Of a DNA stretch of 49,171 nucleotides, positions 753 through 16,725 are shown piece after piece. The position numbers and the translations under genes are program-made. The notes under the pieces were generated by a model. It was not told the origin of the DNA, made no database searches, and worked only from the letters and a program-made list of their open reading frames with translations. Every line of letters begins with the position of its first letter. The first letter of the stretch is position 1. Origin of the DNA: Vicinamibacteria bacterium (GTDB taxonomy: Bacteria > Acidobacteriota > Vicinamibacteria > Fen-336); assembly GCA_023701125.1 (NCBI GenBank), contig JAMPXO010000024.1:1-49171 (forward strand), read 5' to 3'.

Positions 753-2861
753 TCATGCGCGAGTCCGCGTCCAGCTCTCGGGCGTGCGGCGCCAGTCGGC
801 GGCGACCGGCAGCGCCAGCAGGCGGCAGTCGTGGGCGCCGCCGCCCTCCTCCAGCAGCAGCCCCGCCTCGAACAGCGGTTGCAGGCACTCGCGCGGACGC
901 GCGACGAAGTCCGCCGCGCAGAAGCGGAGCGCCGTCGCATCCGCGCCACGGGTCGCTTCCCCGTCGGGCGGCTCGCGCCGGGCAGAGCCCGGCGCTCGGG
1001 CCCTCGGGGGCTCCGTCGCGAACGAACGCTCCTCCGCCCCCGAACCCCCGTCGGGCGGCTCGCGCCGGGCAGAGCCCGGCGCTCGGGCCCCCGGGGGCTC
1101 CGTCGCGAACGAACGCTCCTCCGCCCCCGAACCCCCGTCCGCGTGCTCGCGCGCCAGGCGCAGCAGTCCGGACAGGGTGCCGACGTCGGTCAGCGCGGGC
1201 ACGATCGCGGCGGCGAAGCCGCCCAGCCGCCACTGCCGCGGACCGAAACCCGGGCGCCGGTCGTCGACCACCACCTCGTCCCCGATCTGCTGCCAGGTCA
1301 GCAGGCAGTCGTCCTCGCGCCAGGCCGCGCACCAGGCCATCACGGCCTGCGCGAACTCCCGCACGTGGGGCCCGAGCTGGGCGCCGCGCACGTCTTCGAA
1401 GAAGTAGCCGATCCGCGCCAGCGCGTCGTCCCCGAACGGGTGCAGGAAGTGGTAGTCGGCGGCTGGCCGCAGCTCGAGGCCGAACGCCTGCGGCTCCCGC
1501 TGATAGGGGCTGAAGCGGTGGAACTCGACCGGCGCGACCGCCGCGGGCGGGTGCAGGTGGGCGAGCTTCGGCAGCAGCTCCCGCAGCGGTGCGTAGTCGT
1601 CCGCGTGCTCGCCGGGGATGCCGACCAGCAGGTTGTACGCAGGCAGCAGTCCGAGCTCCCGCGCGTGCTTGAGGAAGGCGACGTTCTGCAGCGGCGTGAC
1701 GCCCTTGCGGATCTGCTGGAGCAGGCGCGCCGACAGGCTCTCGATCCCCGGCTGGACGGCGGTGATGCCCGCCGCCACCAGCCGCTCCGCCTGCGCGCGG
1801 CGCACGTTGGCCTTGATCTCGTAGAAGAACTGAACGCGCACGCCGCGCCGCGCCGTCCACTCCGCGAAGCGCTCGTCGTAGCGCGGGGCCAGGATGTTGT
1901 CCGTCATCAGCAGGTGGCCGACGCGATGGCGCTCGACCACCGCCGTCACCTCGTCGAAGAAGCGCTCGGGGCTCTTCGTGCGGTAACCCATGCCAGAGGC
2001 GTTGAGACCGCAGAAGGTGCAGTGCTGGCGCTCGCCCCACCAGCAGCCGCGCGACGACTCGAGCGCCAGCGTCAGCTCGCGGGTTTCGCCGAGGCCGGAG
2101 CGGGTGAAGGCCTCGACGTAGTCGTCGAAGTCGGGCACGGGCAGGCTGTCGAGGTCCGCCAGCGGCACGGCCGCGGGGCCGGTGAGCGGCTGGCCGTCGG
2201 GTCCCCGGCGCACGAGGCCGGCGACGTCGTCCGTCGCCTGACCGTCGGCCCGTCGCCGCACGTAGTCGGGAAACGCGTGGTCGACCTCGCCCTCGAACAC
2301 CGCGTCGAGGAACGGGAACAGCTCGAGCAGCGCCCGGCCCATGCCGCCGTCCGCGTTGGCCCCGCCCAGCACCACGTGCTGCTGCGGCCGCAGCGCCTTG
2401 AGCCGCTTCGCCAACGCCAGTGCCGGAACGTTCTGGAAGAAGGTCGACGCCAGCCCGACCACGTCGAAGCCCGAGAGCCGCTCGGCCATCGCCTCGACCC
2501 ACTCCACGGCCCGCTCGCGCAGGGCGAGGATCGCCCGCCCGCGAGCGATGGACGCGGGCGCGTCGCCGTGGCGCGCGAAGTAGGCCTGCTGCAGGGCCGG
2601 TTGCTGCGCGGGCAGCGCGTCGCCGTGCAGCGCGCCCGCGAAGATCCACTCGTTGAAGGGATGGAAGCGGCGGCTGGTCAGCGCGTCGTAGAGGTCGGCC
2701 CGCTCGCGCGGAGCGCCCGGGAACTCGGGCACCAGGTCCAGGCCCCAGTAGAAGGTGCGGCACTCGAGACCGCGCGCCCGCACCCCCGCGTGGAGCAGGC
2801 CGAGGCCGAGGCTCGGCACCCCGGCCGGCGCGAACGGCGGATGGACGAGCGCGACCTTCAA
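753..2861 (-). CDS. Cobalamin-type radical SAM RiPP maturase (paralogue A, carries a repeat insertion)
   Basis: This 702-residue protein has a B12-binding-like N-terminal Rossmann region (start KVALVHPPF, later VVLGGANADGG) followed by a radical SAM core with Cys273, Cys281 and Cys284 in a CWWGERQHCTFC motif. That C-x7-C-x2-C spacing and context are typical of the RiPP maturation radical SAM protein 1 family, whose members often C-methylate or otherwise modify core peptides. The start is TTG at 2861, overlapping the upstream stop as TTGA; the longer frame upstream is a shadow. Compared with its paralogue at 9314-11287, it has about 58 extra residues (near 575-634) encoded by an 87-bp tandem repeat. 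The substrate is presumably one or more of the three NHLP precursors; the exact reaction is unknown. Confidence 0.88.
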   Translation of the reverse strand: MKVALVHPPFAPAGVPSLGLGLLHAGVRARGLECRTFYWGLDLVPEFPGAPRERADLYDALTSRRFHPFNEWIFAGALHGDALPAQQPALQQAYFARHGDAPASIARGRAILALRERAVEWVEAMAERLSGFDVVGLASTFFQNVPALALAKRLKALRPQQHVVLGGANADGGMGRALLELFPFLDAVFEGEVDHAFPDYVRRRADGQATDDVAGLVRRGPDGQPLTGPAAVPLADLDSLPVPDFDDYVEAFTRSGLGETRELTLALESSRGCWWGERQHCTFCGLNASGMGYRTKSPERFFDEVTAVVERHRVGHLLMTDNILAPRYDERFAEWTARRGVRVQFFYEIKANVRRAQAERLVAAGITAVQPGIESLSARLLQQIRKGVTPLQNVAFLKHARELGLLPAYNLLVGIPGEHADDYAPLRELLPKLAHLHPPAAVAPVEFHRFSPYQREPQAFGLELRPAADYHFLHPFGDDALARIGYFFEDVRGAQLGPHVREFAQAVMAWCAAWREDDCLLTWQQIGDEVVVDDRRPGFGPRQWRLGGFAAAIVPALTDVGTLSGLLRLAREHADGGSGAEERSFATEPPGARAPGSARREPPDGGSGAEERSFATEPPRARAPGSARREPPDGEATRGADATALRFCAADFVARPRECLQPLFEAGLLLEEGGGAHDCRLLALPVAADWRRTPESWTRTRA
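961..1137 (+). repeat. Two near-identical 87-bp tandem repeats inside a coding region
   Basis: Units begin at 961 and 1048 with a period of 87 bases (29 codons) and differ at one position only. Each contains a perfect 9-bp hairpin, GCGCCGGGC-aga-GCCCGGCGC (975-983 with 987-995 in the first unit). On the minus strand they encode two in-frame copies of a 29-residue stretch starting DGGSGAEERSFATEPP, inside the C-terminal linker of the radical SAM maturase. A related sequence lies between genes at 31342-31412 and a fragment at 37369-37395, so this is a dispersed repeat family that tolerates insertion into a gene. Confidence 0.85.
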
Positions 2862-3760
2862 TCGCGCGAGGCGCCCGCGAGATCGTCCGGGCCCCAGGTC
2901 GCCCCGCTGCCCTCGCGGAAACCCGGGGCCTGCAGCTTGCGCGCCCACAGCGGCAGGTTGCGGCCGACCTCCACCAGGTGCGACGCCAGGTTCGAGCGGT
3001 TGACGAAGTTGAAGGTCAGCGAGATCGCCGGCTCCAGCGCGATCACGCGGTGGGCCCAGCCACGCGGGATGGCGATCACCTCGCCCGGCTCCAGCACGGC
3101 CTCGATCGGCCGCGCCTGCGGCAACAGCGGGAAGCGCTCGAGGTCGGGGGCATCGGGATCGAAGGCGCCCCCGTACAGGTACGGGCGATCCGCCGGCGAG
3201 TAGAGCAGGAAGTGCTTGCGGCCGCAGACCTGTGCGAGCCACGCGTGGGTGCCGAACAGGTCGACGTGGAGCGGCGACAGCGTGCCCGGCGGGCCGATGA
3301 AGATCCACGAGAACTGCTCCACGTACCAGTCCCACAGCGGCCCCTGCAACTCGCGCAGCGCGTTGTCGACGAAGTAGGGCTCGTCGAAGTCGCGCAGCAG
3401 CTCGGGGTGGCGCGCGAAGGGCGAAAAGCTGGTCAGGTAGAAGGGCGTGGGCCCGGCGACCGCGGCCAGCGACGTGAGCGCCGGGAAGCGGCTGTAGACC
3501 ATGAAATCGCCCAACTTGCAGCGCCGGCCGCGGGTGGCGCCCGCCAGGCGATCGGTGACGATCACCGTCTCCTCGCCGTAGCGGTCCGCGAAGAAGTCGA
3601 AGCTCCAGGTCTCCGTGGCCGCCCACGAGCGCATGGCGTCGGTGACGATCACGGGCCGGCCGACGCCGTTCAGGTGCTGCCGCTCGAACTCCACCCGGTC
3701 GACGCCGGCGACGCGCTCGATCGGCACCGAGGTCAGGCTGTAGTGGACGTCGAGGCTCAT
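2858..3760 (-). CDS. JmjC/cupin-like Fe(II)/2-oxoglutarate oxygenase
   Basis: This 300-residue protein resembles the cupin_8/JmjC family. The iron ligands visible are His165 and Asp167 (LSPLHVDLFG) and His237 (PRGWAHRV), giving the HxD...H facial triad; Lys182 is a candidate 2-oxoglutarate contact. In RiPP clusters such enzymes hydroxylate side chains or act on the leader-bound peptide, so a tailoring hydroxylase is the likely role, by inference. The ATG at 3760 overlaps the stop of the upstream arginase-like gene (ATGA), and its own stop overlaps the TTG start of the radical SAM gene. This implies coupled translation of the four-gene minus-strand arm. Confidence 0.82.
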   Translation of the reverse strand: MSLDVHYSLTSVPIERVAGVDRVEFERQHLNGVGRPVIVTDAMRSWAATETWSFDFFADRYGEETVIVTDRLAGATRGRRCKLGDFMVYSRFPALTSLAAVAGPTPFYLTSFSPFARHPELLRDFDEPYFVDNALRELQGPLWDWYVEQFSWIFIGPPGTLSPLHVDLFGTHAWLAQVCGRKHFLLYSPADRPYLYGGAFDPDAPDLERFPLLPQARPIEAVLEPGEVIAIPRGWAHRVIALEPAISLTFNFVNRSNLASHLVEVGRNLPLWARKLQAPGFREGSGATWGPDDLAGASRD

Positions 3761-4686
3761 CGCGCGATCTCCGCGACCCGGGCCAGCGTGCGCGCTCGCC
3801 ACGGCTCCGGCAGCAGGTCGTGGATGCTCCGCTCCGCCAGCGGCCACAACTCCGCGAGCGCCGCGCGCAGCCCGCTCTCGATGCGCTCGATCACGTCGCG
3901 CGGCATGTAGCCGCTCTCGACCGAGCGGCAGAAGATCACCAGCTCGGGCCGCACGCCGTTCTCGCGCAACTGGGTCGCCAGCGCCGCGATGCGGGCCGGG
4001 ATCTCGTCCACCTGGGCTGTGCGGCCCGGCGGCTCCGGGTAGTCGTTGAAGCGCAGGTAGTGGCGGCCGTCGCGCCGGAACGCCGAGATCCGGCTGCCGG
4101 GAGCGATGCGCAGGAAGTGGTAGGGGTTCTCGGTGAAGTCGCGATAACCATCGGCCGAGATCTCCAGCTCCCGGCCCGCGTAGTCCGGGTAGTCGTTGGA
4201 GCAGAAGTAGTCGAGGTCGACGTCGAGCACGACGGGCTGGTCGGTGCGCACCATGTCACCGGGGTGGATCGGGGCGAACTCCATGCGCTGGCGGTCGGCG
4301 GCGTGCTCCCACTCGGTGCCCTCCAGCTTGCCGGTGACGAACTCCAGCCCGCTCGCGTTGCGGGCGCAGATCGCCATCTCCCGCCAGCCGCCCGCGCCCT
4401 TGTGCTTGTGGCGCAGCCACAGCACGCGGTTGAAGTGGCCCTGGTAGACGGCGGCCCAGATGAAGTTGCCGATGTCGAGTTCCTGGTACGTGAAGTCGGC
4501 CAGCGCCTGCACGTCCGTTCGCTGCGGCAGCGGCCGCCGCAACCGCGGCACCGACATGTCGGAGTGCTCGTCGACGTGGAGCAGGGTCACCTCGCCGGAG
4601 GGCATCCAGCCCTCGACGGCGGCCTTGTTCCAGGCGAAGAACGCCTCGTGGTGCTCCTCGACCACGACCAGCGGCACGGCCTTCAT
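3757..4686 (-). CDS. UPF0489-family protein, likely peptide arginase (OspR-like)
   Basis: This 309-residue protein carries the two metal-binding signatures of the arginase fold as seen in UPF0489: D39-x-H41-x-D43 (HVDEHSDM) and D155-x-D157-x-D159 (LDVDLDYF). Members found beside RiPP precursors (OspR of the landornamide pathway) convert Arg in a precursor peptide to ornithine, releasing urea. All three precursors here have one Arg in the core, directly before the first Cys, which is the obvious target. The start is ATG at 4686, overlapping the stop of the upstream GNAT gene (ATGA). The family is clear from motifs; the peptide substrate is inferred. Confidence 0.85.
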   Translation of the reverse strand: MKAVPLVVVEEHHEAFFAWNKAAVEGWMPSGEVTLLHVDEHSDMSVPRLRRPLPQRTDVQALADFTYQELDIGNFIWAAVYQGHFNRVLWLRHKHKGAGGWREMAICARNASGLEFVTGKLEGTEWEHAADRQRMEFAPIHPGDMVRTDQPVVLDVDLDYFCSNDYPDYAGRELEISADGYRDFTENPYHFLRIAPGSRISAFRRDGRHYLRFNDYPEPPGRTAQVDEIPARIAALATQLRENGVRPELVIFCRSVESGYMPRDVIERIESGLRAALAELWPLAERSIHDLLPEPWRARTLARVAEIAR

Positions 4687-5573
4687 GCGACCTCCCCGCC
4701 GCCGGCGAACGCGTGCGAGCGACGCACGATCCAGCGCTTGACCAGCAGCCACGGTCCCAGCCGCCGCTCCACGAAACGCAGCATCTCGGGATTGTGGGTG
4801 GCGACGTCGAAGTAGGCCTTGTCGACCTCCGTGCCCTCGTGGCGCCAGATCGACTCGGCCAGCAACTGCGCGGCGCGACCGAGTCGCTGCAGGTCGCGGC
4901 GCACGAACAGCCGGAAGAAGCGGATCGTGTCGGGCTTCATGCGGTGGGTGATGCACCAGCCGACGACCTCGCCGTGCAGGCGCAGGCCGAGGCTGCTCAC
5001 CGGCTCGACCCGCTCGGGCTCCGGGTACGGGGACAGCGTCTCGGGGTACCACGGCGCGGCCTGCTGGCGGCCGCGGATCGACGCGTCGTCCGCCGCGCTG
5101 CGGTCCACCCAGCGGAACACCTCGTACTCCGGCGGGAACTGCGGCCGCGCCATCCACGGCGCGCGGGTGATGGTCGCGAAGTCCGACTCGCAGATCAGCA
5201 TCCGGCGGCGCGCGGGCAGCCAGCCGCGGGCGTCGAGCGCGCGCTCCACGCGCGGCGAGTAGGCCAGCCCCTCCATGTAGACGGCGGAGGCCCCGGCATA
5301 ACCCTCGCCCGCGAGTTCGTGCTCGACGTGATCGAACAGCAGGCGACCGAGGCCGGCGCCACGGAACGGGACGGCCACCGCCAGCGAGTGGATGCGCGCG
5401 ACGCGCGGGTACTCGCCGTCGGGACCGGCCAGCGCCAGGCCGATCGGCTGGCCCAGCGCCGCAACACCGACGGCGACGCTGTCGGGTCGCTCGAGCAGGG
5501 GGCGGAAGTAGGGGAAGGTGAGGTCGGCGAAGCCGGTGGCTTGCGCCGGCGTCAGGCGCAGCGGGACGTGCAC
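4683..5573 (-). CDS. GNAT-family protein, double-domain type (paralogue A)
   Basis: This protein has about 296 residues. The N-terminal half has a GNAT acetyl-CoA loop (IHSLAVAVPFRGAGLGRLLF), and the C-terminal half looks like a second, degenerate GNAT-like unit (RIFRLF-type strand, then VATHNPEMLRFVERRLGPWL). It is a paralogue of the protein at 12575-13474, with the same layout and the shared pattern LTFPxFRPxLxxPD near the N-terminus. It may acylate the peptide or a free amine, by inference from its position just after the precursor genes. The start is uncertain: GTG at 5573 is chosen because longer frames run into the precursor gene. A stable hairpin (5585-5611) lies just upstream, which could limit its expression relative to the precursors. 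Confidence 0.75.
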   Translation of the reverse strand: MHVPLRLTPAQATGFADLTFPYFRPLLERPDSVAVGVAALGQPIGLALAGPDGEYPRVARIHSLAVAVPFRGAGLGRLLFDHVEHELAGEGYAGASAVYMEGLAYSPRVERALDARGWLPARRRMLICESDFATITRAPWMARPQFPPEYEVFRWVDRSAADDASIRGRQQAAPWYPETLSPYPEPERVEPVSSLGLRLHGEVVGWCITHRMKPDTIRFFRLFVRRDLQRLGRAAQLLAESIWRHEGTEVDKAYFDVATHNPEMLRFVERRLGPWLLVKRWIVRRSHAFAGGGEVA

Positions 5574-5584
5574 CGGCGAAGTGG

Positions 5585-5611
5585 GGGGCGCAGCGGAGAC
5601 CGCTGCACCCC
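5585..5611 (-). terminator. Hairpin between precursor 1 and the GNAT gene (attenuator-like)
   Basis: On the minus strand a 12-bp stem with a three-base loop forms (arms 5600-5611 and 5585-5596, one G-U pair). There is no U-tract, so it is more likely an RNA-stabilising or partial-termination element than a strong terminator. It separates the precursor genes from the downstream enzyme genes, a common way to make precursor in excess. Confidence 0.5.
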
Positions 5612-5622
5612 GCTCCCCCGCC

Positions 5623-5982
5623 CTAGATGCAGCCGCCGACAGCTCCCACCCCGGGCAGACCGACGCTGATCGTGGAGGTGACCCCACAGGACGCCGCGCA
5701 AGACGCCGCGCAACGCCCGCCGCCGGCGACCTGCTCGAGCTGCGTGTCGCTCAGCTCGCCGTCGTCGGCGACCAGCTCGGGCAGCACGATGCTGACGTGG
5801 GCGCCGGTGCCGTCGAAGAACTTGATCTTCAGGCTCTCCGGTATGCCGCGGCCCGCGACCTTCATCACGGCCATGTTCGGGTCCTTCAGCGCGAGCTTGC
5901 GGAACTCCGCGTCCGTCTGGCCGCGACGCACCGTCTCACGAATGACCCGGTCGATCTCCTCGGAAGTCCACTGCTCGGCCAT
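5623..5982 (-). CDS. NHLP-leader RiPP precursor 1 (divergent core)
   Basis: This 119-residue peptide has a nitrile-hydratase-alpha-like leader (from EEIDRVIRETVRRG to the LSDTQLEQVAGGG end) followed by a 31-residue core that begins RCAASCAASCGV and ends GAVGGCI. The core has four Cys, four Ser and two Thr, which suits lanthionine formation by the LanM at 13471-16725. It also has a single Arg directly after the GGG motif. The hydrophobic Gly/Val-rich C-terminal tail is absent from the two other precursors. GGGAGG lies about nine bases before the ATG. Leader identity is high confidence; the ring pattern cannot be predicted. Confidence 0.92.
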   Translation of the reverse strand: MAEQWTSEEIDRVIRETVRRGQTDAEFRKLALKDPNMAVMKVAGRGIPESLKIKFFDGTGAHVSIVLPELVADDGELSDTQLEQVAGGGRCAASCAASCGVTSTISVGLPGVGAVGGCI

Positions 5983-6006
5983 CTCCTGGATCCTCCCTGG
6001 CTAGCG

Positions 6007-6339
6007 CTAGACGATCGCGGAGATGCCGCAGGACACGACGCACGAGCCGCCGCAACGGTTGGCGTCGCCGCCGCCCGCGACCTGCTCGAGCTCGGCATCC
6101 GACAACTCGCTGCTCTGCGACGGCGGGTCGGGCAGCACGACGGTCAGGGTCGCGCCCGCGTTGTCCACGAAGCGCACCTTGAACCACTTCGGCAGCGGCG
6201 TGGGGTCGATCTTCGCGATCGCCGCGACCGGGTCCGCCAGCGCCAGCTTGCGGAACTCCATGTCCGTCTGCGCGCGCTTCGCGAGCTCGCGCAACTTCTC
6301 GTTCGCCTTGTCCTGCGTCCAGCCGTTGGTCTCGACCAT
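6007..6339 (-). CDS. NHLP-leader RiPP precursor 2
   Basis: This 110-residue precursor has an NHLP leader ending ELSDAELEQVAGGG and a short core, DANRCGGSCVVSCGISAIV. The last 17 residues are identical to those of precursor 3, yet the DNA differs at Arg, Gly, Ser and Val codons, including a TCG-to-AGC serine switch that needs more than one base change. The core has three Cys, three Ser and one Arg. The ribosome-binding site AAGGAG (6352-6347) is seven bases before the ATG. A GC-rich hairpin (6370-6392) separates it from precursor 3. It is presumably dehydrated and cyclised by the LanM and further tailored by the arginase and radical SAM enzymes. Confidence 0.94.
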   Translation of the reverse strand: MVETNGWTQDKANEKLRELAKRAQTDMEFRKLALADPVAAIAKIDPTPLPKWFKVRFVDNAGATLTVVLPDPPSQSSELSDAELEQVAGGGDANRCGGSCVVSCGISAIV

Positions 6340-6369
6340 TCGATTTCTCCTTACAGAAGGCAGAAAGGC

Positions 6370-6392
6370 GGAGCGGGGGCGCCCCCCGCTCC
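6370..6392 (-). terminator. Perfect 10-bp GC-rich hairpin between precursors 2 and 3
   Basis: GGAGCGGGGG (6370-6379), a three-base loop, and the exact reverse complement (6383-6392). No U-run follows. It lies in the short spacer after the stop of precursor 3 and before the ribosome-binding site of precursor 2, so an mRNA-stabilising or attenuating role is likely. Confidence 0.55.
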
Positions 6393-6405
6393 GACGGGTG
6401 AGCGA

Positions 6406-6744
6406 CTAGACGATCGCGGAGATGCCGCAGGAGACGACGCAGCTCCCGCCGCAGCGGTTGCCCGAGCCGCCGCCGCCGGCCACCTGCTCGAGCTCGGCGT
6501 CGGAGAGCTCGCTGTCCGCCTTGATCGGGTCCGGCAGGACGACGGTCAGCGTCGCGCCCGCGTTGTCGACGAAGCGGATCTTGAACCAGGCCGGCATCGG
6601 CGCGGGGTCGATCTTGGCGATGGCCGCGGCCGGGTCAGCCAGGGCCAGCTTGCGGAACTCCATGTCCGTCTGCGCGCGCTTGGCCAGCACCCGCAGCTTC
6701 TCGTTGGCCTTCTCCTGCGTCCAGCCGTTCGTCTCCTGGGTCAT
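6406..6744 (-). CDS. NHLP-leader RiPP precursor 3
   Basis: This 112-residue precursor is a close paralogue of precursor 2. Its leader differs at only a few positions (such as KADSELSDAELEQVAGGG), and its core, GSGNRCGGSCVVSCGISAIV, ends in the same 17 residues. The ATG at 6744 is chosen because AGGAGG (6755-6750) lies five bases upstream. The upstream extension of the frame is non-coding. As the promoter-proximal gene it probably heads the minus-strand operon. Single core Arg, three Cys and three Ser as in precursor 2. Confidence 0.94.
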   Translation of the reverse strand: MTQETNGWTQEKANEKLRVLAKRAQTDMEFRKLALADPAAAIAKIDPAPMPAWFKIRFVDNAGATLTVVLPDPIKADSELSDAELEQVAGGGGSGNRCGGSCVVSCGISAIV

Positions 6745-7004: not shown

Positions 7005-7009
7005 TCATG
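6962..7009 (-). terminator. Inverted repeat with T8 run after repA-like gene
   Basis: On the minus strand GCATGAGGTC (7009-7000) and GACCTCGTGC (6971-6962) form a 10-bp stem with one G-U pair. The loop contains an eight-base T run (about 6988-6981) that directly follows a GC-rich stretch. It overlaps the last codons of the repA-like gene. It may end repA-like transcription before the precursor operon; the T run inside rather than after the stem makes this unusual. Confidence 0.45.
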
Positions 7010-7874
7010 CACGTGTGTTGCTCGAGCGGGCCGCCCGGACGTCGCGGAGGAAGGCGAGCGCCGCGGGCTCGTGCTCGGGCTCGCGATGGCCGATCAGCAG
7101 GCTGCAACCGTCTCCGGTGAGCTCGGCGGTCCAGCTCGGATCGAAGCCCCGGACCCGCTCGAGCCAGCCGCGCACCTTGGCCCGGAAGTCGCGTTCCTGG
7201 GCGTACACCAGGCCCAGTTGGCGCATCAGCCCGGCCGCGCCCGTCAGCGTGATGGCCGTCATCCCGCCCGGCCGGATGGCCGCGGCGCGGGCGATGGTCC
7301 AGAGGTAGAAGTCGAGGTTGGCCGGGCTGTCCGAGAGCTGTCGCACCGCTTCCCACGGGAAGGACACGAAGCTGCGCCGCAACTCGCGCCAGAAGTCGCT
7401 GCTCAAGCGGGTGCGGTTGACCCCCCGCGGGTCGTCGGCGGCGGGTGGAGTGGCGCCCTCGCACCACAGGTGGGCATGGTCGAAGCACAGCAGCGAACTG
7501 CGCTGGGCTGGCTTCCCGTCGGGCGTCCGGAACTGCTGTCGCACGATCAGGGCGGCGTTGCAGACCCGCAGCAGGCGCTGCGCCATGCGCTGGTAGTTGC
7601 GGCCGTCCGGCGGCAGGCCCAGGTCGCCCAGGATGGCGAAGGCCGAGCCGAGGTCGACCTCGCGACTGTTCGCGTAGACCGCGCGCGTGCAGGCCAGCAG
7701 CAGCAACGCTCGATCCTGACCGAACGGCACCCCGTACTCGGGCGCGCCGAAGACCTGGACCTCGCTGGGCCCAAGCCGCCGCGTCCAGGTGGTGGACCGG
7801 AAGGGGCGCACCGGCAGCGCGCCGAAGACCAGGGCGCGAACGGCGTAGCCGATCCGCGGCGGGCCCGCGCTCAC
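7005..7874 (-). CDS. Plasmid-type replication initiator (RepA_C family-like)
   Basis: This 289-residue protein matches my memory of the plasmid RepA_C pattern: EVQVFGAPEYGVPFGQDRALLLLAC (near residues 37-61), then SREVDLGSAFAILGDLGLPPDGRNYQRMAQRLLRV, an early strand-helix pair, and later FWRELRRSF. Such proteins bind origin iterons and start plasmid replication. Here it sits between a RiPP precursor operon and an S41 protease gene on an otherwise chromosomal window, suggesting a captured plasmid remnant or a domesticated DNA-binding protein. No iterons were seen in the flanks. Family call is moderate; role is open. Confidence 0.65.
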   Translation of the reverse strand: MSAGPPRIGYAVRALVFGALPVRPFRSTTWTRRLGPSEVQVFGAPEYGVPFGQDRALLLLACTRAVYANSREVDLGSAFAILGDLGLPPDGRNYQRMAQRLLRVCNAALIVRQQFRTPDGKPAQRSSLLCFDHAHLWCEGATPPAADDPRGVNRTRLSSDFWRELRRSFVSFPWEAVRQLSDSPANLDFYLWTIARAAAIRPGGMTAITLTGAAGLMRQLGLVYAQERDFRAKVRGWLERVRGFDPSWTAELTGDGCSLLIGHREPEHEPAALAFLRDVRAARSSNTRA

Positions 7875-7957: not shown

Positions 7958-9304
7958 ATGGATCGGTTCCCGGCGGACGAGCGTGAGCGCGAGGCCGCCT
8001 GGCTGCGCGCCCTCGGCCTGCGCGTGCCGGAGCGATTCTTCGCCGACCCGTTCGTGCAGCCCACGGCCTGGTTCGCCCACCCCGCCTCGAGCGTCGATCC
8101 CCACGCGCTGGCCGACGACCTGCCGCTGCTGCGCGAGACCCTGCGCGACGCGTACGCGGGTTGGGAGACCGCGAGCGAGGCCGACTGGGGCACGCTCTTC
8201 ACCGCGTGGGAGCGCCACCTGCGCGGCACGCCGGCACCGCGCGACGCCTTCGCTCCCTGGACCGCGTGGCAAGGCCGCTGCCCCGATCGCCACACCGGCC
8301 CCTGGCCCGGCTCGCCGACACCACAGCCGTTTACGGGGGTCGTCCAGGGCGCCCTCGAGGGCGCGGAGGCCTGGCGCGACGCGAGCGGCGTCGAGCACGC
8401 CCTCGACCATGGAGTGCGCGTGCACGCCGCGTACGCGGAGTCCCGCCGCGTCGGCGTCGTGCGCGCCCTCGCCGAGGCGCCGGCTCCCGCCGCGGTGCGC
8501 AGCGCGGGCGCGTGGCATGTCGTGCGTCCGCTGTTGCCCCTCCCCACTCCTCCGCTGGCCGACGAGCCAGCAACCGGGGCCCTCGCGCCCGACGTCGGGT
8601 CGATTCGCATCCCCACTGCGACCCCGGCGCACGTCGCCCCGCGCCTGCCCTCCTCGCAATGGCGCCTCGTCGTCTGCGACCTGCGCGGCAACCGCGGCGG
8701 CGGCCTCGGCCCCTGGCTCGACTACCTGTGCGCCTGGCTCGGGGCGTCCGTGCTCGACCCGTGGCGCCAGGTCGGCGGCTGGGATGTGAGGTCGCCGCGC
8801 ACGCCGGCCCTGCACTGGGGCGTGGCGCAGGCGGCTGTCGTGGGCCACCACTCCCCGCTCGAGGAGCCGCTGCGAACCCAGGCTCAGGCCGTGCTCGACG
8901 GCCTCGGCTCGTGCCCGCGACGCGAGGTCGTGAGGCGCTCGGGACACTGGCGCTGGCCGGTTTCCCCGCGGCCCGCCCCGACGGACGAACCGCGGCTGAT
9001 CGTGCTCGTCGACGATCGCTGCGGCTCGGACGGCGAGTTGCTCGCCATGCTGCTGGCGGTCCGCCCCGGCGCGCGGCTGGTCGGCCGCGGAACGGCGGGC
9101 GCCTGCGGCTGGGTGCGGCCCGGGCGGCTGGTGCTGCCCCGCTCGCGGGTGGGCTTCCAGCTCGCCACGGGGCGACTCGACCCGCTGGGACCCGACCGGC
9201 CCGTGGACGGCCTCGGTCTGCCGGTCGACGTGCTGGTGGAAGCGTGGCCCGCGGACGACGCGGGCCTGCTGGCCCTCGCGCGCGCGGCGGACGGCTGCCC
9301 CTAG
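7958..9304 (+). CDS. S41-family serine protease, candidate leader peptidase
   Basis: This 448-residue protein has an N-terminal S41-like helical region (AYAGWETASEADWGTLFTAW) and a C-terminal S41 core: VVCDLRGNRGG, then LVDDRCGSDGELLAMLL with the likely nucleophile Ser in CGSDGE, followed by LVGRGTAGACGW and the GLGLPVDV end. No signal peptide is visible, so it probably acts in the cytoplasm. It is transcribed divergently from the repA-like gene and is followed nine bases later by the second radical SAM maturase. No other protease occurs in the cluster, so removal of the NHLP leader is a reasonable but unproven role. An AT-rich TAGTAT box lies nine bases before the ATG. Confidence 0.78.
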   Translation: MDRFPADEREREAAWLRALGLRVPERFFADPFVQPTAWFAHPASSVDPHALADDLPLLRETLRDAYAGWETASEADWGTLFTAWERHLRGTPAPRDAFAPWTAWQGRCPDRHTGPWPGSPTPQPFTGVVQGALEGAEAWRDASGVEHALDHGVRVHAAYAESRRVGVVRALAEAPAPAAVRSAGAWHVVRPLLPLPTPPLADEPATGALAPDVGSIRIPTATPAHVAPRLPSSQWRLVVCDLRGNRGGGLGPWLDYLCAWLGASVLDPWRQVGGWDVRSPRTPALHWGVAQAAVVGHHSPLEEPLRTQAQAVLDGLGSCPRREVVRRSGHWRWPVSPRPAPTDEPRLIVLVDDRCGSDGELLAMLLAVRPGARLVGRGTAGACGWVRPGRLVLPRSRVGFQLATGRLDPLGPDRPVDGLGLPVDVLVEAWPADDAGLLALARAADGCP

Positions 9305-9313
9305 AATCGCGGC

Positions 9314-11287
9314 TTGCTCCCCTCCACCGCGGTCCGAGTCGCGCTCGTCCAGCCGCCGTTCGGCTCCGGCATCCTGCCCGGCCTCGGTCTCGCGCTGCTC
9401 AAGGGCGAGTTGCTGCAGCGCGGCCTCGAGTGCCGGATCTTCTACTGGGACCTCGACCTGCTCGCGGAGATCCCCGGACGCACCGCGCGCGAGCGCTTCC
9501 AGGGCTTCTCCGAGTTGACGTCGCGGCCGTGGTTCCCGTTCAACGAGTGGGTCTTCGCCCAGGTCGTGCACGACGACCGCCTCGACCACCGCGCCGAGGC
9601 GCTGACGGCACGGCTGCGCCCGTTCGCCCGCAGCCGCCGCAACGGCGAGGCGCTGGCCGAGCATCTGCTCGGGTTGCGCCGCGACGCGCCCGCGGTGGTC
9701 GACCGCTGCGTCGACCAGCTCGCGGCCTACGACGTGGTCGGCATCGGCACGACGTTCCTGCAGAACACGGCGGCGCTGGCGCTGGCCCGCCGCGTCAAGC
9801 AGCGCTGGCCGCACAAGACGGTCGTGCTCGGCGGGGCCAACTGCGACGGCGAGATGGGGGCTGCGCTGCTCGAGCACTTCCCGTTTCTCGATCACGTCTT
9901 CTCGGGCGAGGTCGACTTCGCCTTCCCGGCGTTCGTGCAGGCGCTCGCGGCCGGACAGCCGGCCGGCGACGTGCCCGGCCTCATCTCCCGAGACGGCGCG
10001 GGCCGCGTGACGGGGACGCCGGCACCGCCGCTCGGCGCACTCGACGCGCTCGCCGTTCCCGACTACGAGGACTACACCGAGGCCTTCCACCGCCACGGCC
10101 TCGACGGCTTCCTGCGGCTGACGCTCTCGCTCGAGTCGTCGCGCGGCTGCTGGTGGGGCGAGCGCCACCACTGCACGTTCTGCGGACTGAACGCCGGCGG
10201 CATGGCGTTCCGGCGCAAGAGCCCCGAGCGCTTCGAGGCCGAGGTCGACGAGGTCGTGCGCCGCTACGGCGTGCGCTATCTCTACATGGCCGACAACATC
10301 CTCGCGGTCGACTACTACGGCGGCCTGCTCGAACGCATGCGCCCGCGCGACGTCGAGTTCTTCTACGAGATCAAGTCGAACGTGACCCGCCGCCAGGTCG
10401 CCAGCCTGGCCGCCGGCCACGTCAGCTACGTGAAGCCCGGCATCGAGCACTTCTCGTCCGCGATCCTGGCCCGCATGCGCAAGGGGGTCACGGGCATCCA
10501 GAACGTCGCCCTGCTGCGACTGGCGCGCGAGTACGGCGTGCTCGTCGATTACGGCTTCCTCGTCAACTTCCCGGGTGAAGAGACGGAGGAGTACGACCGC
10601 CTCGCGCTGGAGTTGCCCAGGCTCAGCCACCTGCGCCCGCCCGTGGCGCTGACCCCGATCGAGTTCCACCGCTTCAGTCCCTATCACCAGGACCCCGCGC
10701 AGTTCGGCCTCGCGCTGCGACCCTGGCGGGAGTACGCGGAGATCTACCCGCTGCCCGAGGACCAGGTCGCGCGCGTCGCCTACGTGTTCGAGAGCTCGCA
10801 GGGGGTGCCGCCGGACTTTGCGCACCTGCGACGGCTGCTCGAACAGGTGCGGCGCTGGCACGCGCTGTACGACGAGCAGCGCTGCACGCTGGTGTGGGAG
10901 GCCGACGGCGACGACGTGGTCGTCGACGACACGCGGCCCGGGTTCGGGCCCCGTCGCTACCGCGTCAGCGGCTTCGCCGTCGAGGTCTTGCGCCTGCTCG
11001 ACGAGCCGAAGCCGCTGCTGGCCCTGTCGCGAGCCGCGGCGGCCGCCGCGAGTGCCGCCGTGCCCGCCCCGCCCCCGCTGCGAGCGGACGAAACCGCGAT
11101 CCACTTCGACGCGGGCGCCTTCCGCGCAGACCCCGAGGCGTGCCTCGCTCCGCTGCGCGAAGCGGGGCTGCTTTTCGAAGAGGCTCTCTCGCGGCTCGCG
11201 GGCTCCAACGCCACGGAGACCTACGCGCTGGCGCTGCCGGTACCACGCGCCTGGCGTCCGGCCAACCTCGACTGGCTCGTCTACTGA
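9314..11287 (+). CDS. Cobalamin-type radical SAM RiPP maturase (paralogue B)
   Basis: This 657-residue protein is a full-length paralogue of the maturase at 753-2861. It has a B12-binding-like N-terminus (VRVALVQPPFGSG, VVLGGANCDGEMG), a radical SAM core with Cys279, Cys287 and Cys290 (CWWGERHHCTFC) and a C-terminal domain without the repeat insertion of paralogue A. The start is TTG at 9314, nine bases after the protease stop; no ATG or GTG fits better. Both maturases probably act on the NHLP precursors, perhaps at different positions or on different precursors. Its last seven bases overlap the convergent HTTM gene. Confidence 0.88.
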   Translation: MLPSTAVRVALVQPPFGSGILPGLGLALLKGELLQRGLECRIFYWDLDLLAEIPGRTARERFQGFSELTSRPWFPFNEWVFAQVVHDDRLDHRAEALTARLRPFARSRRNGEALAEHLLGLRRDAPAVVDRCVDQLAAYDVVGIGTTFLQNTAALALARRVKQRWPHKTVVLGGANCDGEMGAALLEHFPFLDHVFSGEVDFAFPAFVQALAAGQPAGDVPGLISRDGAGRVTGTPAPPLGALDALAVPDYEDYTEAFHRHGLDGFLRLTLSLESSRGCWWGERHHCTFCGLNAGGMAFRRKSPERFEAEVDEVVRRYGVRYLYMADNILAVDYYGGLLERMRPRDVEFFYEIKSNVTRRQVASLAAGHVSYVKPGIEHFSSAILARMRKGVTGIQNVALLRLAREYGVLVDYGFLVNFPGEETEEYDRLALELPRLSHLRPPVALTPIEFHRFSPYHQDPAQFGLALRPWREYAEIYPLPEDQVARVAYVFESSQGVPPDFAHLRRLLEQVRRWHALYDEQRCTLVWEADGDDVVVDDTRPGFGPRRYRVSGFAVEVLRLLDEPKPLLALSRAAAAAASAAVPAPPPLRADETAIHFDAGAFRADPEACLAPLREAGLLFEEALSRLAGSNATETYALALPVPRAWRPANLDWLVY

Positions 11288-12030
11288 ACGAGCCGACGGA
11301 TCTCGCCGGCCCAGAACACGACGGCGGGCAGCGGCGCCGCGAACGCCCACGGGAACACGTTGAGGCCCATCGCGAAGGCCGTCGCGAAGTGGAAGCCGAG
11401 AGCGGCGAGGCAGAAGGCGAGCGCCCCCGTCTCGCCGCTCACCAGCGCCAGCGGAAAGGCGCTCTCGAACAAGATCACCATCCAGCCGAAGGCGGGCGCG
11501 GTGCGGCCCGGGATCACCATCCGCGCGATCAGCGGGTGCCCGTAGGGGCGCGTGCGCAACAGCGCGGCCAGCAGGCTGCCGTCGCGCCACGAGGCCATCC
11601 ACGCCTTCATCACGCCGGCCGTCGTGTAGGCCGCGACGGAGAGCGTCGCGGCGAAGCCCAGGAACGCGCGCACGACGGCGTCGGTCGGCGCCGCCGCGGC
11701 CAGCGCCAGCGCGACGCCGAGCACGAACTGGAGCTGGTCCGCGCCCTCGAGGCCCCAGCGCGCGCGCAGCATCAACAGCAGCGACGAGACGGCCGCCAGC
11801 ACCGCGGCGGGCAGCACGAGGTCGGGCCAGCTCCCGCAGGCGACGCCGACGCCGGCCGCCGCGCGGAGCGCCGCGACCAGCACCCACGGGCCGCGCCCGC
11901 CGCTCTCCCCCCAGTAGGAAGCCGCGCTCCACTCGCGGACGAGCGCGAGCCACTCCAGCGAGGACAGCACCAGCGCCGCGCCGAGGAAGAGGCGCAACCA
12001 GGCGAGGGCGTCGAGCGGGTCGGCGAGCAT
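11281..12030 (-). CDS. HTTM/SdpB-like integral membrane protein (copy A)
   Basis: This 249-residue protein has about six hydrophobic segments, beginning with ALAWLRLFLGAALVLSSLEWL. The central YTTAGVMKAWMASWRDGSLLAALLRTRPYGHP region matches the HTTM (vitamin K carboxylase-like) family pattern. SdpB, required with SdpA for maturation of the SDP peptide toxin, belongs to this membrane family. The gene directly follows a 163-residue anchored protein through a TGATG junction, the same order as sdpA-sdpB. A paralogous pair lies at 17636-18921. Role in peptide maturation or immunity is inferred. Confidence 0.72.
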   Translation of the reverse strand: MLADPLDALAWLRLFLGAALVLSSLEWLALVREWSAASYWGESGGRGPWVLVAALRAAAGVGVACGSWPDLVLPAAVLAAVSSLLLMLRARWGLEGADQLQFVLGVALALAAAAPTDAVVRAFLGFAATLSVAAYTTAGVMKAWMASWRDGSLLAALLRTRPYGHPLIARMVIPGRTAPAFGWMVILFESAFPLALVSGETGALAFCLAALGFHFATAFAMGLNVFPWAFAAPLPAVVFWAGEIRRLVQ

Positions 12031-12574: not shown

Positions 12575-13474
12575 ATGATCGCGGTCGCGCCACTCCCCGC
12601 CCAGGACGCTCCGGCCTGGGAGCACCTGACCTTCCCGCTCTTCCGGCCGCAACTGCAGGAGCCGGACGTGCTGTGCGTCGCCGCGTCCTGCGGCGGCCAG
12701 CCGGTGGGCCTGGCGGTGGCCCGCCGCGGCCGCACCGCCCAGTTGTTGTCGATCGCCGTGGACTCGCCCTGGCGCAAGCAGGGCATCGGCGGCCGCCTGC
12801 TCGCCGCGACCCTGGAGCAGTTGAGCGCGGACGGCGCCGACAGCGTGGAGGCCGTCTACATCGCGGGCCAGCCCTCGACGCCGGCACTGGAGCGATTGCT
12901 CCAGCACCACGACTTCGCGCCGCCGCAGCCGCGGATGCTCGTCTGCCGGGCCCTGATCGCCACCCTCGTCGAGGCCCCGCTGGTCGCCGGTCGCCGGCAG
13001 CCGCGCCGCGGTCGGATCGTCGGCTGGGACGAGATGGGGGCGCACACCCGCGAGGCGCTGCACGAGGAGGCCAGCCGGCCCGGCGCCTGCCCCGACTGGG
13101 CGTGGCCGTTCTTCGACGAAGCGCGGATCGAGCCGGCGAACAGCGTCGTGCTCGAGCACGCCGGCCGCGTGCAGGGCTTCATGGTCAACCACCGCATCGC
13201 CGCCGACACGGTGCGCTACTCGCGCCTGTTCCTGTTTCCCGGAGCGGCCCGCGGCGCGGGCTTCGCGCTCGCCGGCGAGTCGCTCTGGCGCCAGCACGAG
13301 CGGCTGGGCGCGCGGGTCCCGAAAGGCTCTTGCGACCTCGAGGTCGCCAATCGCATGATGCTCAACTTCCTCGGGCGCCACCTGCGCCCGTGGCTCACCA
13401 GCGTGGCCGTCAGCAAGGTGGCGCGCAAGGTCCTGGTGCCGCAGGCAAAGGCTGTCGGAGATCCCGCTCGATGA
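12575..13474 (+). CDS. GNAT-family protein, double-domain type (paralogue B)
   Basis: This 299-residue protein has an acetyl-CoA loop at LSIAVDSPWRKQGIGGRLL in the N-terminal half. A second GNAT-like half ends DLEVANRMMLNFLGRHLRPWL, matching the C-terminal pattern of the paralogue at 4683-5573. It heads the plus-strand arm and its stop overlaps the LanM start (ATGA), so it is made together with the synthetase. Acylation of the peptide (for example N-terminal or ornithine side chain) is a plausible but untested role. The ATG at 12575 has no clear Shine-Dalgarno. Confidence 0.78.
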   Translation: MIAVAPLPAQDAPAWEHLTFPLFRPQLQEPDVLCVAASCGGQPVGLAVARRGRTAQLLSIAVDSPWRKQGIGGRLLAATLEQLSADGADSVEAVYIAGQPSTPALERLLQHHDFAPPQPRMLVCRALIATLVEAPLVAGRRQPRRGRIVGWDEMGAHTREALHEEASRPGACPDWAWPFFDEARIEPANSVVLEHAGRVQGFMVNHRIAADTVRYSRLFLFPGAARGAGFALAGESLWRQHERLGARVPKGSCDLEVANRMMLNFLGRHLRPWLTSVAVSKVARKVLVPQAKAVGDPAR

Positions 13475-16400
13475 CGCTCGACGACGACGCCCTCCGCCGC
13501 ATCGTGTGCCGCGCCGCGACCCTCGAGGAGCGGCTGCACGCGCCGTTCGTGCCGGCGCCGCCGCGAACCGACGACGAACGGGAGCGGGCGCAGGCCCGCA
13601 TCGCCCGCTGGCAGCAGGGCAGCGCGATCGGCGACGACGCGCTGTTCGCGCGGCGCCTGGCCTGGGACGGTCTCGACGCGGAGCGCGCGCTCGCGGTCGC
13701 CAACGGCGTGCGCCTGGCCGACGGTGCGGGGCTGCCCACGTGGACCGAGGTGCTGCGGCGCGGGGTCGCGCGGGCGACGGAACTCGCCCCGCTCTCGCGC
13801 GCGGAGATCGCGCAGCGCTGTGCGTTCCTGAAGGCCGACGAGCCCTGCGCCTTCGAGCAGGTCCTCGCGCCCTTCGTGGAGATCGCCAGCGAGCGGCTGA
13901 CAGCCGAGGCGCCCGACCTCGACGCCCTCGTCACGCCCGCCGCACTGGCGGACATGCAGCGCCACCTGCTGCAGTGGCTGTGCGCCGCCGGGGCCGAGAC
14001 GCTCGGCCTCGAGTTCAGCCTCGCGCGCTCGCTGGCCCCGGTCGGCTCCGGCTTCCAGGTCTACTGGTTCGGCCACGCGGACGGCGGCGGCGCGCCGGGC
14101 AGCGAGCGCTACGACGCCTTCGTGCGCGAGCTGCTCGGCGGCGGGCTGGCGCGGGTGGTGGAGGAGTTCGCGTTCCTCGGCCGCCTGCTCGGCCGCGTCA
14201 CGGAGCTGTGGACCGAGTCCAGCCTCGAGTTCGTCGATCGCCTGCGCGCCGATCGGGGCGAGTTGCAGCGCGCCTTCGGGGGCGAGGCTCCGCTCGGCCG
14301 CGTCGCCGCCGCCCACGCGGGCCTGTCCGACCGCCACCGCGGGGGCCGCACGACCTGGCACGTCACGTTCGAGTCCGGCGCCTGCTGCATCTACAAGCCG
14401 AAGGGGCTCGAGTCGGAGCGCGTGTTCCTGGAGCTGCTCGCCTGGCTCAACACCCACGGCGCCCCGCTGCCGCTGCGGGTGTTCGCGGCGGTCCACCGCC
14501 CCACCCACGGCTGGGTCGAGGTCGTGAAGCCCGGCTCGTGCGACGACGAAGCGGCGGTCGCTCGCTACTACCAGCGGGCGGGCCACATGCTGGCACTCGC
14601 CTACCTGCTCGACGGCAGCGACTTCCACCACGAGAACGTGATCGCCTCCGGCGAGCACCTCGTCTTCATCGACCTGGAGACCATCCTCTGCCACCGCGTG
14701 CGCGACCTCGGCCTCGAGGAGGAGGGCGCCAACTCGCTCGCCAACCGCGTCTTCTACTGGGACTCGGTGTTCCGCACGGCGCTGCTGCCGCGCTGGGAGT
14801 TCGGCGCGGGCGGCGAGAGCTACGACGTGAGCGGCCTCGGCGGCGTGTCCGCCCAGGCGACGTCGTTCACCCGCAAGGCGTGGAAGCACATCAACACCGA
14901 CGGCATGGAGCTCGCGCGCGAGGTGCTGAAGACACAGCCCTCGCAGAACGTGGTCCGCGTCGGCGAGCGCGTCGTCTCGCCCGCCCTCCACGTCGAGGAG
15001 ATGGTGCAGGGCTTCGCCGAGATGCACGGCCTGTTCCGCGAGCGCCGCAAGGAGCTGCTGGCCGGGCCGCTACGGGCGATGGCCGAGCTGCCGCTGCGCT
15101 TCATCTACCGCCACACCAAGATCTACACGGTGCTGCTCGGCTCGTACCTGCTGCCGCAGTTCCTCCGCGACGGCTTCGACGCCTCGCTGCAGGTCGACCG
15201 CCTGGCGCGGCCGCTGCTGCACACCGAGGAGCGCCACCCGTTCTGGCCGCTGATCGCCTCCGAGTCGCGCCAGCTCCTGCAGGCCGACATCCCGCTGCTG
15301 GGCTCGTGGGCCCACCGCGACGCGCTGGAGATGTCCGATGGCGAGGAGTTGCCCGGCTTCTTCGCCGAGCCCAGCTTCGACGCGCTCCGCCGGCGACTGG
15401 AGGACCTCGACGAGGCCGACCTCGCGCGCCAGGCGCAGTACATCCGCGCCTCGTTCCAGCTGCCGGAGCTCGCGCGGCCGGCGACCGCCGCCGCCGAGGA
15501 GCCCGTCGGCGAGGCTCCACCTTTGACCGACGACGCGCTGATCGCCGCTGCCGTGCGACTGGCAGACGAGATGGAACGGACCTCGATCCGCGCCGGCGGC
15601 ACCGCGACCTGGATCACGCTGCAGTACCACGCCGAGGCCCAGCGCTGGCAACTGCAGCCGATGGCGCCGCGGCTCTACGACGGCGTCGCCGGCACCGCGC
15701 TGTTCCTGGCCGGGCTGCACCACGCGACGGGCCACGAGGCCGCAGGCCGGCTCGCCCGCGAGGCCTTCCGCGGGGCCGCCGCCCAGCTCGACCCGACCTG
15801 GTTCCGGCTGCTGTTCGAGCCCGGCATCGGCGCGGGGCTCGGCGCGACCTCGCTACTTTACGGATTGCTGCGCGGCGCCCAACTGCTCGACGAGCCGGAG
15901 CTGCTCCAGGCCACCCTGCGCGGCGTCGCCTGCGTGACGCCCGAGCGCATCGCCCACGACGCCCGGCTCGACCTGCTGGGCGGGGTCGCCGGCGCGGCCG
16001 TGACGCTGCTCGCCCTGCACCGCGCCGGCGGCGACGACCACACGCTCGACCTGGCCGTGGCCTGCGGGCGTCACCTGCTCGACAAGCGGCGCGCCGCCGA
16101 CGGCGGCCTTCGGGCCTGGCCGACGCTCAACGCGACGGTGCTGGCCGGCTTCTCGCACGGCGCGGCGGGCATCGTGCTGGCGCTGGAGCGGCTGCACGCG
16201 GCGACGGGCCTGGACGAGTTCGGACAGGCCGCGCTCGAAGGCCGCGAGTGGGAGAACTCGATCTACGACGAAGCGGAGGGCAACTGGCCCGACTTCCGCT
16301 CGCCGCGCACCGGCCGCGGCCACGCGTTCCAGAGCACCTGGTGCCACGGCGCGTCGGGCATCGGCCTCGGCCGCGTCGATCGCCCGGGCGGACTCGACGA

Positions 16401-16725
16401 CACGGCCCGCCGCGACGTGGAGCGGGCGGTGGCCAAGACGCTGGAGGCCCGAGTGACGGACATCGACCATCTCTGCTGCGGCGAGTTGGGCCGGGTCGAG
16501 CTGCTGTTCGAGGCCGGCCGCCGGCTGGACCGCCCCGACCTCGTCGCCGAGGGCCGCCGTCGGGTCGAAGCCGTCGTCCACGCCGCGGAGCGGCGGGGTC
16601 GCTACGCACTGGGCTTCGAGTCGGGCCCCAGCGTTCCTTCGTTCTTCCAGGGCACGGCCGGCGTCGGCTGGGCCCTGCTGCGCGCGGCTCGTCCGGAGCT
16701 GCCCTCGGTGCTGCTGTGGCAGTGA
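13471..16725 (+). CDS. lanM: Class II lanthipeptide synthetase LanM, CCG type
   Basis: This 1084-residue bifunctional enzyme dehydrates Ser/Thr and closes thioether rings. The N-terminal DUF4135 dehydratase shows YKPKGLESERVF, DGSDFHHENV and FIDLETILCH (kinase-like phosphate and metal residues). The C-terminal LanC-like cyclase shows WCHGASGIG (near 957) and CCGELG (near 1002). In most LanMs the second motif is CHG; the third zinc ligand is therefore Cys here, as in ProcM-type synthetases known for broad substrate range. This fits a cluster with divergent precursors. ATG at 13471 overlaps the GNAT stop (ATGA); the stop overlaps the next GTG. Confidence 0.95.
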   Translation: MTLDDDALRRIVCRAATLEERLHAPFVPAPPRTDDERERAQARIARWQQGSAIGDDALFARRLAWDGLDAERALAVANGVRLADGAGLPTWTEVLRRGVARATELAPLSRAEIAQRCAFLKADEPCAFEQVLAPFVEIASERLTAEAPDLDALVTPAALADMQRHLLQWLCAAGAETLGLEFSLARSLAPVGSGFQVYWFGHADGGGAPGSERYDAFVRELLGGGLARVVEEFAFLGRLLGRVTELWTESSLEFVDRLRADRGELQRAFGGEAPLGRVAAAHAGLSDRHRGGRTTWHVTFESGACCIYKPKGLESERVFLELLAWLNTHGAPLPLRVFAAVHRPTHGWVEVVKPGSCDDEAAVARYYQRAGHMLALAYLLDGSDFHHENVIASGEHLVFIDLETILCHRVRDLGLEEEGANSLANRVFYWDSVFRTALLPRWEFGAGGESYDVSGLGGVSAQATSFTRKAWKHINTDGMELAREVLKTQPSQNVVRVGERVVSPALHVEEMVQGFAEMHGLFRERRKELLAGPLRAMAELPLRFIYRHTKIYTVLLGSYLLPQFLRDGFDASLQVDRLARPLLHTEERHPFWPLIASESRQLLQADIPLLGSWAHRDALEMSDGEELPGFFAEPSFDALRRRLEDLDEADLARQAQYIRASFQLPELARPATAAAEEPVGEAPPLTDDALIAAAVRLADEMERTSIRAGGTATWITLQYHAEAQRWQLQPMAPRLYDGVAGTALFLAGLHHATGHEAAGRLAREAFRGAAAQLDPTWFRLLFEPGIGAGLGATSLLYGLLRGAQLLDEPELLQATLRGVACVTPERIAHDARLDLLGGVAGAAVTLLALHRAGGDDHTLDLAVACGRHLLDKRRAADGGLRAWPTLNATVLAGFSHGAAGIVLALERLHAATGLDEFGQAALEGREWENSIYDEAEGNWPDFRSPRTGRGHAFQSTWCHGASGIGLGRVDRPGGLDDTARRDVERAVAKTLEARVTDIDHLCCGELGRVELLFEAGRRLDRPDLVAEGRRRVEAVVHAAERRGRYALGFESGPSVPSFFQGTAGVGWALLRAARPELPSVLLWQ

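What the first reader, a model, noticed from the sequence alone, without database searches (positions are those of the whole stretch)
3757..6744. Peptide-arginase-like enzyme beside three precursors that each have one core Arg next to the first Cys
The UPF0489 protein at 3757-4686 carries both arginase metal motifs (DEHSD, DVDLD). All three precursor cores have exactly one Arg: NRC in precursors 2 and 3 and RC directly after GGG in precursor 1. In landornamide biosynthesis an OspR arginase of this family makes ornithine in a LanM-processed NHLP precursor. The invariant position suggests ornithine next to the first thioether ring is a fixed feature of these products.
Basis: partly seen in the sequence, partly recalled or inferred. 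Interest (0 to 1): 0.85.

Follow-up and report, generated by a model that had tools for sequence, protein, structure and literature searches.

The report
Arginine-to-ornithine lipolanthipeptide gene cluster
A bacterium (probably an Acidobacteriota) carries a gene cluster predicted to make small ring-bearing peptides in which one arginine is turned into ornithine and then probably hydroxylated and fatty-acylated, a new variant of a recently described peptide family.

Summary
The gene at 3757-4686 (-) is an intact peptide arginase: all three motifs, all six metal ligands, and a confident model whose only strong PDB match is OspR. Each of the three NHLP-like precursors has exactly one core Arg, directly before the first Cys. 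P2 and P3 are paralogs, so the strong evidence is comparative. In related clusters from Caulobacteraceae, Elusimicrobia and Bdellovibrionota the order precursor-GNAT-arginase-JmjC-LanM recurs and every core starts GG-R-C. None of 18 arginase clusters with a readable precursor lacks a core Arg; six GNAT clusters with no arginase seen nearby have Lys there instead.

The interpretation needs changing. The gene set matches phaeornamide better than landornamide, and in phaeornamide ornithine is an intermediate. The arginase overlaps a tandem GNAT gene and a JmjC hydroxylase gene. I predict Arg to Orn to hydroxy-Orn to N-acyl-hydroxy-Orn beside lanthionine rings, with two B12 radical-SAM C-methyltransferases as extras. 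No chemistry has been shown. It is a new variant of a known kind (selidamide-like), not categorically new.

The parts
6406..6744 (-). Precursor 3, NHLP-like leader, core GSGNRCGGSCVVSCGISAIV; Arg codon CGC at 6454-6456
   Evidence: TIGR03793 46.0 bits (cut-off 50.9); conserved in L003 with an identical core
6007..6339 (-). Precursor 2, core DANRCGGSCVVSCGISAIV; Arg codon CGT at 6055-6057
   Evidence: TIGR03793 47.4 bits; identical core in L003, Arg codon CGC there
5623..5982 (-). Precursor 1, core RCAASCAASCGVTSTISVGLPGVGAVGGCI; Arg codon CGT at 5713-5715
   Evidence: TIGR03793 48.8 bits; L003 copy differs by 2 residues in the core region, Arg kept with codon CGC
4683..5573 (-). Tandem GNAT acyltransferase 1 (start codon uncertain)
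   Evidence: PF00583 in two stretches; homologs beside NHLP/Nif11 precursors in other phyla; stop overlaps arginase start at 4683-4686
3757..4686 (-). Peptide arginase (UPF0489/OspR superfamily)
   Evidence: PF12640, NF052474, PDB 8BRP 3e-48; six ligands intact; model pLDDT 93.6, Foldseek OspR 3.1e-30
2858..3760 (-). JmjC/Cupin_8 2-oxoglutarate oxygenase, predicted ornithine hydroxylase
   Evidence: PF13621; H165, D167, H237 invariant; JMJD5 and JMJD6 nearest in PDB; start overlaps arginase stop
753..2861 (-). B12 radical SAM RiPP C-methyltransferase 1 (TTG start assumed)
   Evidence: TIGR03975 514.9 bits, cut-off 281.85
7958..9304 (+). S41-family peptidase-like protein, role in the cluster uncertain
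   Evidence: PF03572 30.7 bits, cut-off 24; kept at the same place in L003
9314..11287 (+). B12 radical SAM RiPP C-methyltransferase 2
   Evidence: TIGR03975 537.4 bits
12575..13474 (+). Tandem GNAT acyltransferase 2
   Evidence: PF00583 40.3 bits; 33% identical to GNAT 1
13471..16725 (+). Class II lanthionine synthetase LanM
   Evidence: TIGR03897 792 bits, cut-off 304; DUF4135 and LANC_like domains

Best explanation
This is a selidamide-like class II lanthipeptide cluster. Precursors 1-3 are made with NHLP-like leaders. The peptide arginase hydrolyses the single core Arg beside the first Cys to ornithine. The JmjC enzyme then probably hydroxylates that ornithine, and the tandem GNAT probably places a fatty acyl group on its side-chain nitrogen, as PhaR, PhaI and PhaN do in phaeornamide. 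LanM dehydrates Ser/Thr and closes thioether rings with the Cys residues, two B12 radical-SAM enzymes add C-methyl groups, and a C39-type transporter elsewhere in the genome or another protease removes the leader at GG/GGG. Shown here: gene identities, intact metal sites, gene order, and conservation of Arg together with the arginase. Inferred: every chemical step, the order of steps, the acyl chain, the methylation sites and the ring pattern.
For: Arginase family, fold and six ligands. Start/stop overlaps GNAT-arginase-JmjC-rSAM. Same order precursor-GNAT-arginase-JmjC-LanM in L013, L018, L027, L049 with GG-R-C cores. Arg in a core of all 18 arginase clusters with readable precursors against 4 of 14 arginase-lacking genomes. 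GNAT clusters without a nearby arginase have Lys as the first basic core residue (Fisher p = 0.0023). Phaeornamide has the same enzyme set and order of steps (PMC9505594); BipG and PbsQ show JmjC/cupin ornithine hydroxylation after a UPF0489 arginase; NpuN acylates the Lys1 side chain. JmjC nearest to JMJD5/JMJD6.
Against: No reaction was measured. PhaI, PhaN, KspN and NpuN sequences could not be fetched for direct comparison. No C39 transporter lies beside the window cluster (one lies on contig C184). In L013 and L018 the arginase has lost a metal ligand while RC is kept, which weakens the link there. Fisher tests treat clusters as independent, and only about 8 kb of flank was checked for an arginase.
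Confidence: 0.65

Rival explanations
1. Landornamide-like: the arginase makes ornithine and it stays free in the product, while GNAT and JmjC act on other sites such as the N-terminal amine, Asn or Val.
For: OspR leaves ornithine unmodified in landornamide (PMC10028609). N-terminal acylation by GNATs is known for lipolanthines (PMC13060382). P2 and P3 have Asn beside the Arg.
Against: GNAT and JmjC are adjacent to the arginase across four phyla. The Asn is absent in the other clusters' cores. In P2 and P3 the Arg keeps its place beside Cys but not relative to GGG, so it is not tied to the N-terminus. The radical SAM enzymes are C-methyltransferases, not epimerases.
Confidence: 0.2
2. The arginase is inactive or acts on another substrate, and the Arg beside Cys is kept for leader cleavage or for LanM recognition.
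For: Arg is at or near the cleavage site. One arginase-lacking control precursor also has Arg at position 1 (L075). Arginases of L013 and L018 have lost a metal ligand while RC stays.
Against: Distance from the cleavage site varies within the window; no RC at the first Cys in 16 arginase-lacking control cores; Lys replaces Arg in GNAT clusters without a nearby arginase; the window enzyme keeps all six ligands.
Confidence: 0.07

Closest known systems
Phaeornamide cluster (selidamides; phaA, R, M, I, N, T)
   Same: NHLP precursor, UPF0489 arginase, class II LanM, Fe(II)/2-oxoglutarate hydroxylase and GNAT N-acyltransferase (PMC9505594)
   Different: Three precursors, two GNATs and two B12 radical SAM C-methyltransferases here; no transporter adjacent; whether PhaI is a JmjC protein was not verified
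Landornamide cluster (OspA, R, M, D)
   Same: Peptide arginase, LanM and NHLP precursor
   Different: Landornamide has a radical SAM epimerase and two unmodified ornithines, and the sources read name no GNAT or hydroxylase; the window arginase is outside the OspR/cyanobacterial group in the tree
Nostolysamides (NpuA, M, N)
   Same: LanM with a tandem GNAT that acylates a core side-chain amine at the start of the core
   Different: Lys1 is acylated directly and no arginase is reported; Nif11 leader
Biphenomycins (BipC, BipG, BipD; PbsE, PbsQ)
   Same: UPF0489 arginase followed by a JmjC/cupin ornithine hydroxylase, and a B12 radical SAM enzyme
   Different: Different precursor (FRF motif), MNIO and biaryl cross-link, no LanM or GNAT reported

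Membership tests
Peptide arginase (PF12640, OspR type) | Motifs EEH(N/H)EAF, DxHxD and LDxDLDYF with six metal ligands | tested here: met
   EEHHEAF, DEHSD, LDVDLDYF; ligands HDHDDD
Peptide arginase (PF12640, OspR type) | OspR fold and sequence family | tested here: met
   PF12640 over cut-off; 8BRP 3e-48; Foldseek 3.1e-30, TM 0.81
Peptide arginase (PF12640, OspR type) | Arg-to-Orn activity on the precursor | not testable with these tools
   Needs co-expression and MS
FlmR/OhkR subfamily (NF052474) | Score at or above the curated cut-off of 350 bits | tested here: not met
   229.3 bits: related, but not a member of that subfamily
NHLP (proteusin) precursor | Leader scoring above the TIGR03793 cut-off | tested here: inconclusive
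   46.0-48.8 bits against 50.9; ELSDxxLEQVAGG end present
Class II lanthipeptide | LanM and a core with Ser/Thr and Cys | tested here: met
   TIGR03897 792 bits; cores with Ser and Cys; ring formation not tested
Selidamide | RiPP cluster with a GNAT of the tandem type beside the precursor | tested here: met
   Two acetyltransferase stretches in GNAT 1; homologs beside K- or R-start cores; NpuN itself not compared
Selidamide | Fatty acyl group on an Orn or Lys side chain | not testable with these tools
   Needs product analysis
Landornamide pathway | Radical SAM peptide epimerase (OspD type) | tested here: not met
   Both radical SAM proteins near the precursors are TIGR03975 C-methyltransferases over cut-off
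JmjC ornithine hydroxylase (BipG/PbsQ-like) | HxD...H iron triad in a JmjC/Cupin_8 fold | tested here: met
   H165, D167, H237 invariant; Foldseek JMJD5 1.4e-19; direct comparison with BipG not made
JmjC ornithine hydroxylase (BipG/PbsQ-like) | Hydroxylates ornithine after arginase action | not testable with these tools
   Needs assay

The most novel reading that the evidence does not exclude
A cross-phylum family of lipolanthipeptides (Acidobacteriota, Alphaproteobacteria, Elusimicrobiota, Bdellovibrionota), C-methylated in the window's lineage, defined by a GG-(x)n-R-C core start and a mobile precursor-GNAT-arginase-JmjC-LanM cassette that builds N-acyl-hydroxyornithine, with an evolutionary switch between Lys (no arginase) and Arg plus arginase at the acylation site, and with degenerate arginase paralogs kept as possible partner proteins in some clusters.
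Probability: 0.35. Interest if true: 0.65.

Novelty: new variant of a known kind. Interest (0 to 1): 0.5.

Why it matters
Side-chain lipidation of ribosomal peptides is known from very few examples. This cluster predicts a modification site from sequence (the Arg beside the first Cys), suggests a comparative rule (Lys alone, or Arg with an arginase) for which residue a GNAT will acylate, and points to the same machinery in Acidobacteriota, Elusimicrobiota and Bdellovibrionota. The cores are short and hold one Arg, so each step should read out as a single clean mass shift, which suits peptide engineering.

Tried and rejected
Plasmid collection: no arginase relative. Alphaproteobacteria, 385 genomes: only the known Caulobacteraceae hit, so phaeornamide itself was not reached. 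Landornamide membership rejected on the radical SAM type. FlmR/OhkR subfamily membership rejected on the curated cut-off. Tried to show that cyanobacterial contigs L053 (GNAT, LanM, Arg-rich core) and L008 (arginase, same genome) are neighbours by shared end k-mers: none found, so L053 is left out of the Arg/Lys test. N-terminal acylation considered and ranked below side-chain acylation, because the Arg tracks the Cys and not the GGG. Precursors near the GNATs of L103, L105-L108 and L111-L115 could not be recognised, so those loci say nothing.

Full report
Observation. The window is contig C148 of a 5.4 Mb genome; its nearest relative found is a Vicinamibacteria MAG (L003, 88% arginase identity, same gene arrangement), so it is probably an Acidobacteriota. 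Against OspR (PDB 8BRP) it gives 3e-48 by sequence; an AlphaFold2 model with mean pLDDT 93.6 has three OspR chains as its only PDB matches at E <= 0.001. The six metal ligands H12, D39, H41, D43, D155 and D157 are intact.

Precursors. P1, P2 and P3 have NHLP-like leaders that score just below the TIGR03793 cut-off and cores RCAASCAASC..., DANRCGGSCVVSC... and GSGNRCGGSCVVSC.... Each core has one Arg, directly before the first Cys. P2 and P3 are paralogs with nearly the same core, so the within-window invariance is weaker than it looks. Between the window and L003 the core regions differ at 19 synonymous and 2 amino-acid-changing codons, and the Arg of P1 and P2 is kept through a CGT/CGC change.

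Neighbourhood. The operon reads P3-P2-P1-GNAT-arginase-JmjC-rSAM on the minus strand, and the last four genes overlap by start and stop codons (4683-4686, 3757-3760, 2858-2861; from the sequence). Facing it are an S41-like peptidase, a second TIGR03975 radical SAM C-methyltransferase, a second tandem GNAT and a class II LanM. The set is kept in L003.

Comparative test. The genome scan found 28 arginase loci; the genome search added more. The order NHLP-GNAT-arginase-JmjC-LanM occurs in L013 (Caulobacteraceae), L018 (Elusimicrobia), L027 (Bdellovibrionales) and L049 (a second genome of that phylum), with cores starting GG-R-C in every case. All 18 arginase clusters with a readable precursor have Arg in a core; among NHLP precursors found in arginase-lacking genomes of the window's phylum, 4 of 14 genomes do, and none has Arg directly before the first Cys. 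About a dozen arginase loci had no recognisable precursor and are not counted. The arginase is rare: 2 of 396 genomes of the phylum, the window's own included.

Lys/Arg switch. GNAT homologs were searched in Cyanobacteria and the home phylum. Where a precursor could be read and no arginase was found in the flanks (L052, L054, L102, L104, L109, L110), the first basic residue of the core is Lys at position 1-3. Where an arginase is present it is Arg (window with L003, L004, L013, L018, L027, L049, L101), with L019 mixed. At cluster level this gives p = 0.0023 by Fisher's test, which treats clusters as independent; flanks of only about 8 kb or less were seen. The L102 core (KRKSCPLNTSFTACFIRSGCWGSKC) has Lys at 1, 3 and 24, the positions reported for NpuA, whose Lys1 is acylated. 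L053 has a similar core with Arg at positions 1-4, in a genome that has an arginase on another contig; it is suggestive only.

Mechanism. Phaeornamide has the same enzyme set, and its reported order is Arg to Orn (PhaR), Orn to 4-hydroxy-Orn (PhaI), then acylation (PhaN) (PMC9505594). BipG, a JmjC protein, hydroxylates Orn after the UPF0489 arginase BipC (PMC12707348), and PbsQ does the same after PbsE (PMC12257519). The window JmjC keeps the iron triad, and its nearest solved structures are JMJD5 and JMJD6, known for action on Arg and Lys. I therefore read the Arg as the seat of three successive modifications. What is shown is gene identity, intact sites and co-conservation; the reactions are inferred.

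Caveats and oddities. In L013 and L018 the third arginase motif reads GVCLDFF and DVCLDYF, so a metal ligand is Cys. Both clusters of the Bdellovibrionales phylum carry an intact arginase next to a paralog that has lost all six ligands. In L012 and L015 (cyanobacteria) a degenerate arginase domain is fused to a 2OG-Fe(II) oxygenase domain beside an intact arginase. Since peptide arginases are homodimers (PMC12703449), the degenerate copies may be binding partners; this is untested. The window cluster lacks an adjacent C39 transporter; the genome has one on contig C184, while L018 and L027 have one beside the cluster.

Verdict. Observation confirmed; interpretation partly supported. It is a new variant of a known kind, best described as selidamide-like.

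Noticed in passing
L027 8051-9001; L049 9106-10011: Arginase paralogs that have lost all six metal ligands, directly beside an intact arginase in two related genomes; possible heterodimer or substrate-binding partners.
   Followed up: partly
L012 7296-8921; L015 7605-8975: In two cyanobacteria a degenerate arginase domain is fused to a C-terminal 2OG-Fe(II) oxygenase domain, next to an intact arginase, hinting at coupled ornithine hydroxylation.
   Followed up: partly
L013 9001-9873; L018 9001-9849: Arginases with the third motif GVCLDFF or DVCLDYF: a metal-ligand Asp is replaced by Cys, although GG-R-C precursors are kept. Activity and metal use unclear.
   Followed up: no
window 7005-7874 (-): A 289-aa protein of no recognised family (NCBIfam, PHROGs, Pfam) beside the precursors, kept in L003; by eye it recalls plasmid replication initiators.
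   Followed up: partly
window 11281-12521 (-) and 17689-18921 (+): Two copies of an unrecognised membrane-like protein (related to each other), one with a small upstream neighbour, flank the LanM side; no family match.
   Followed up: partly
L004 7527-9924: Acidobacteriaceae cluster with an NHLP core VNRNNVNL (one Arg, no Cys), GNAT and arginase but no LanM seen: possibly a linear lipidated ornithine peptide.
   Followed up: partly
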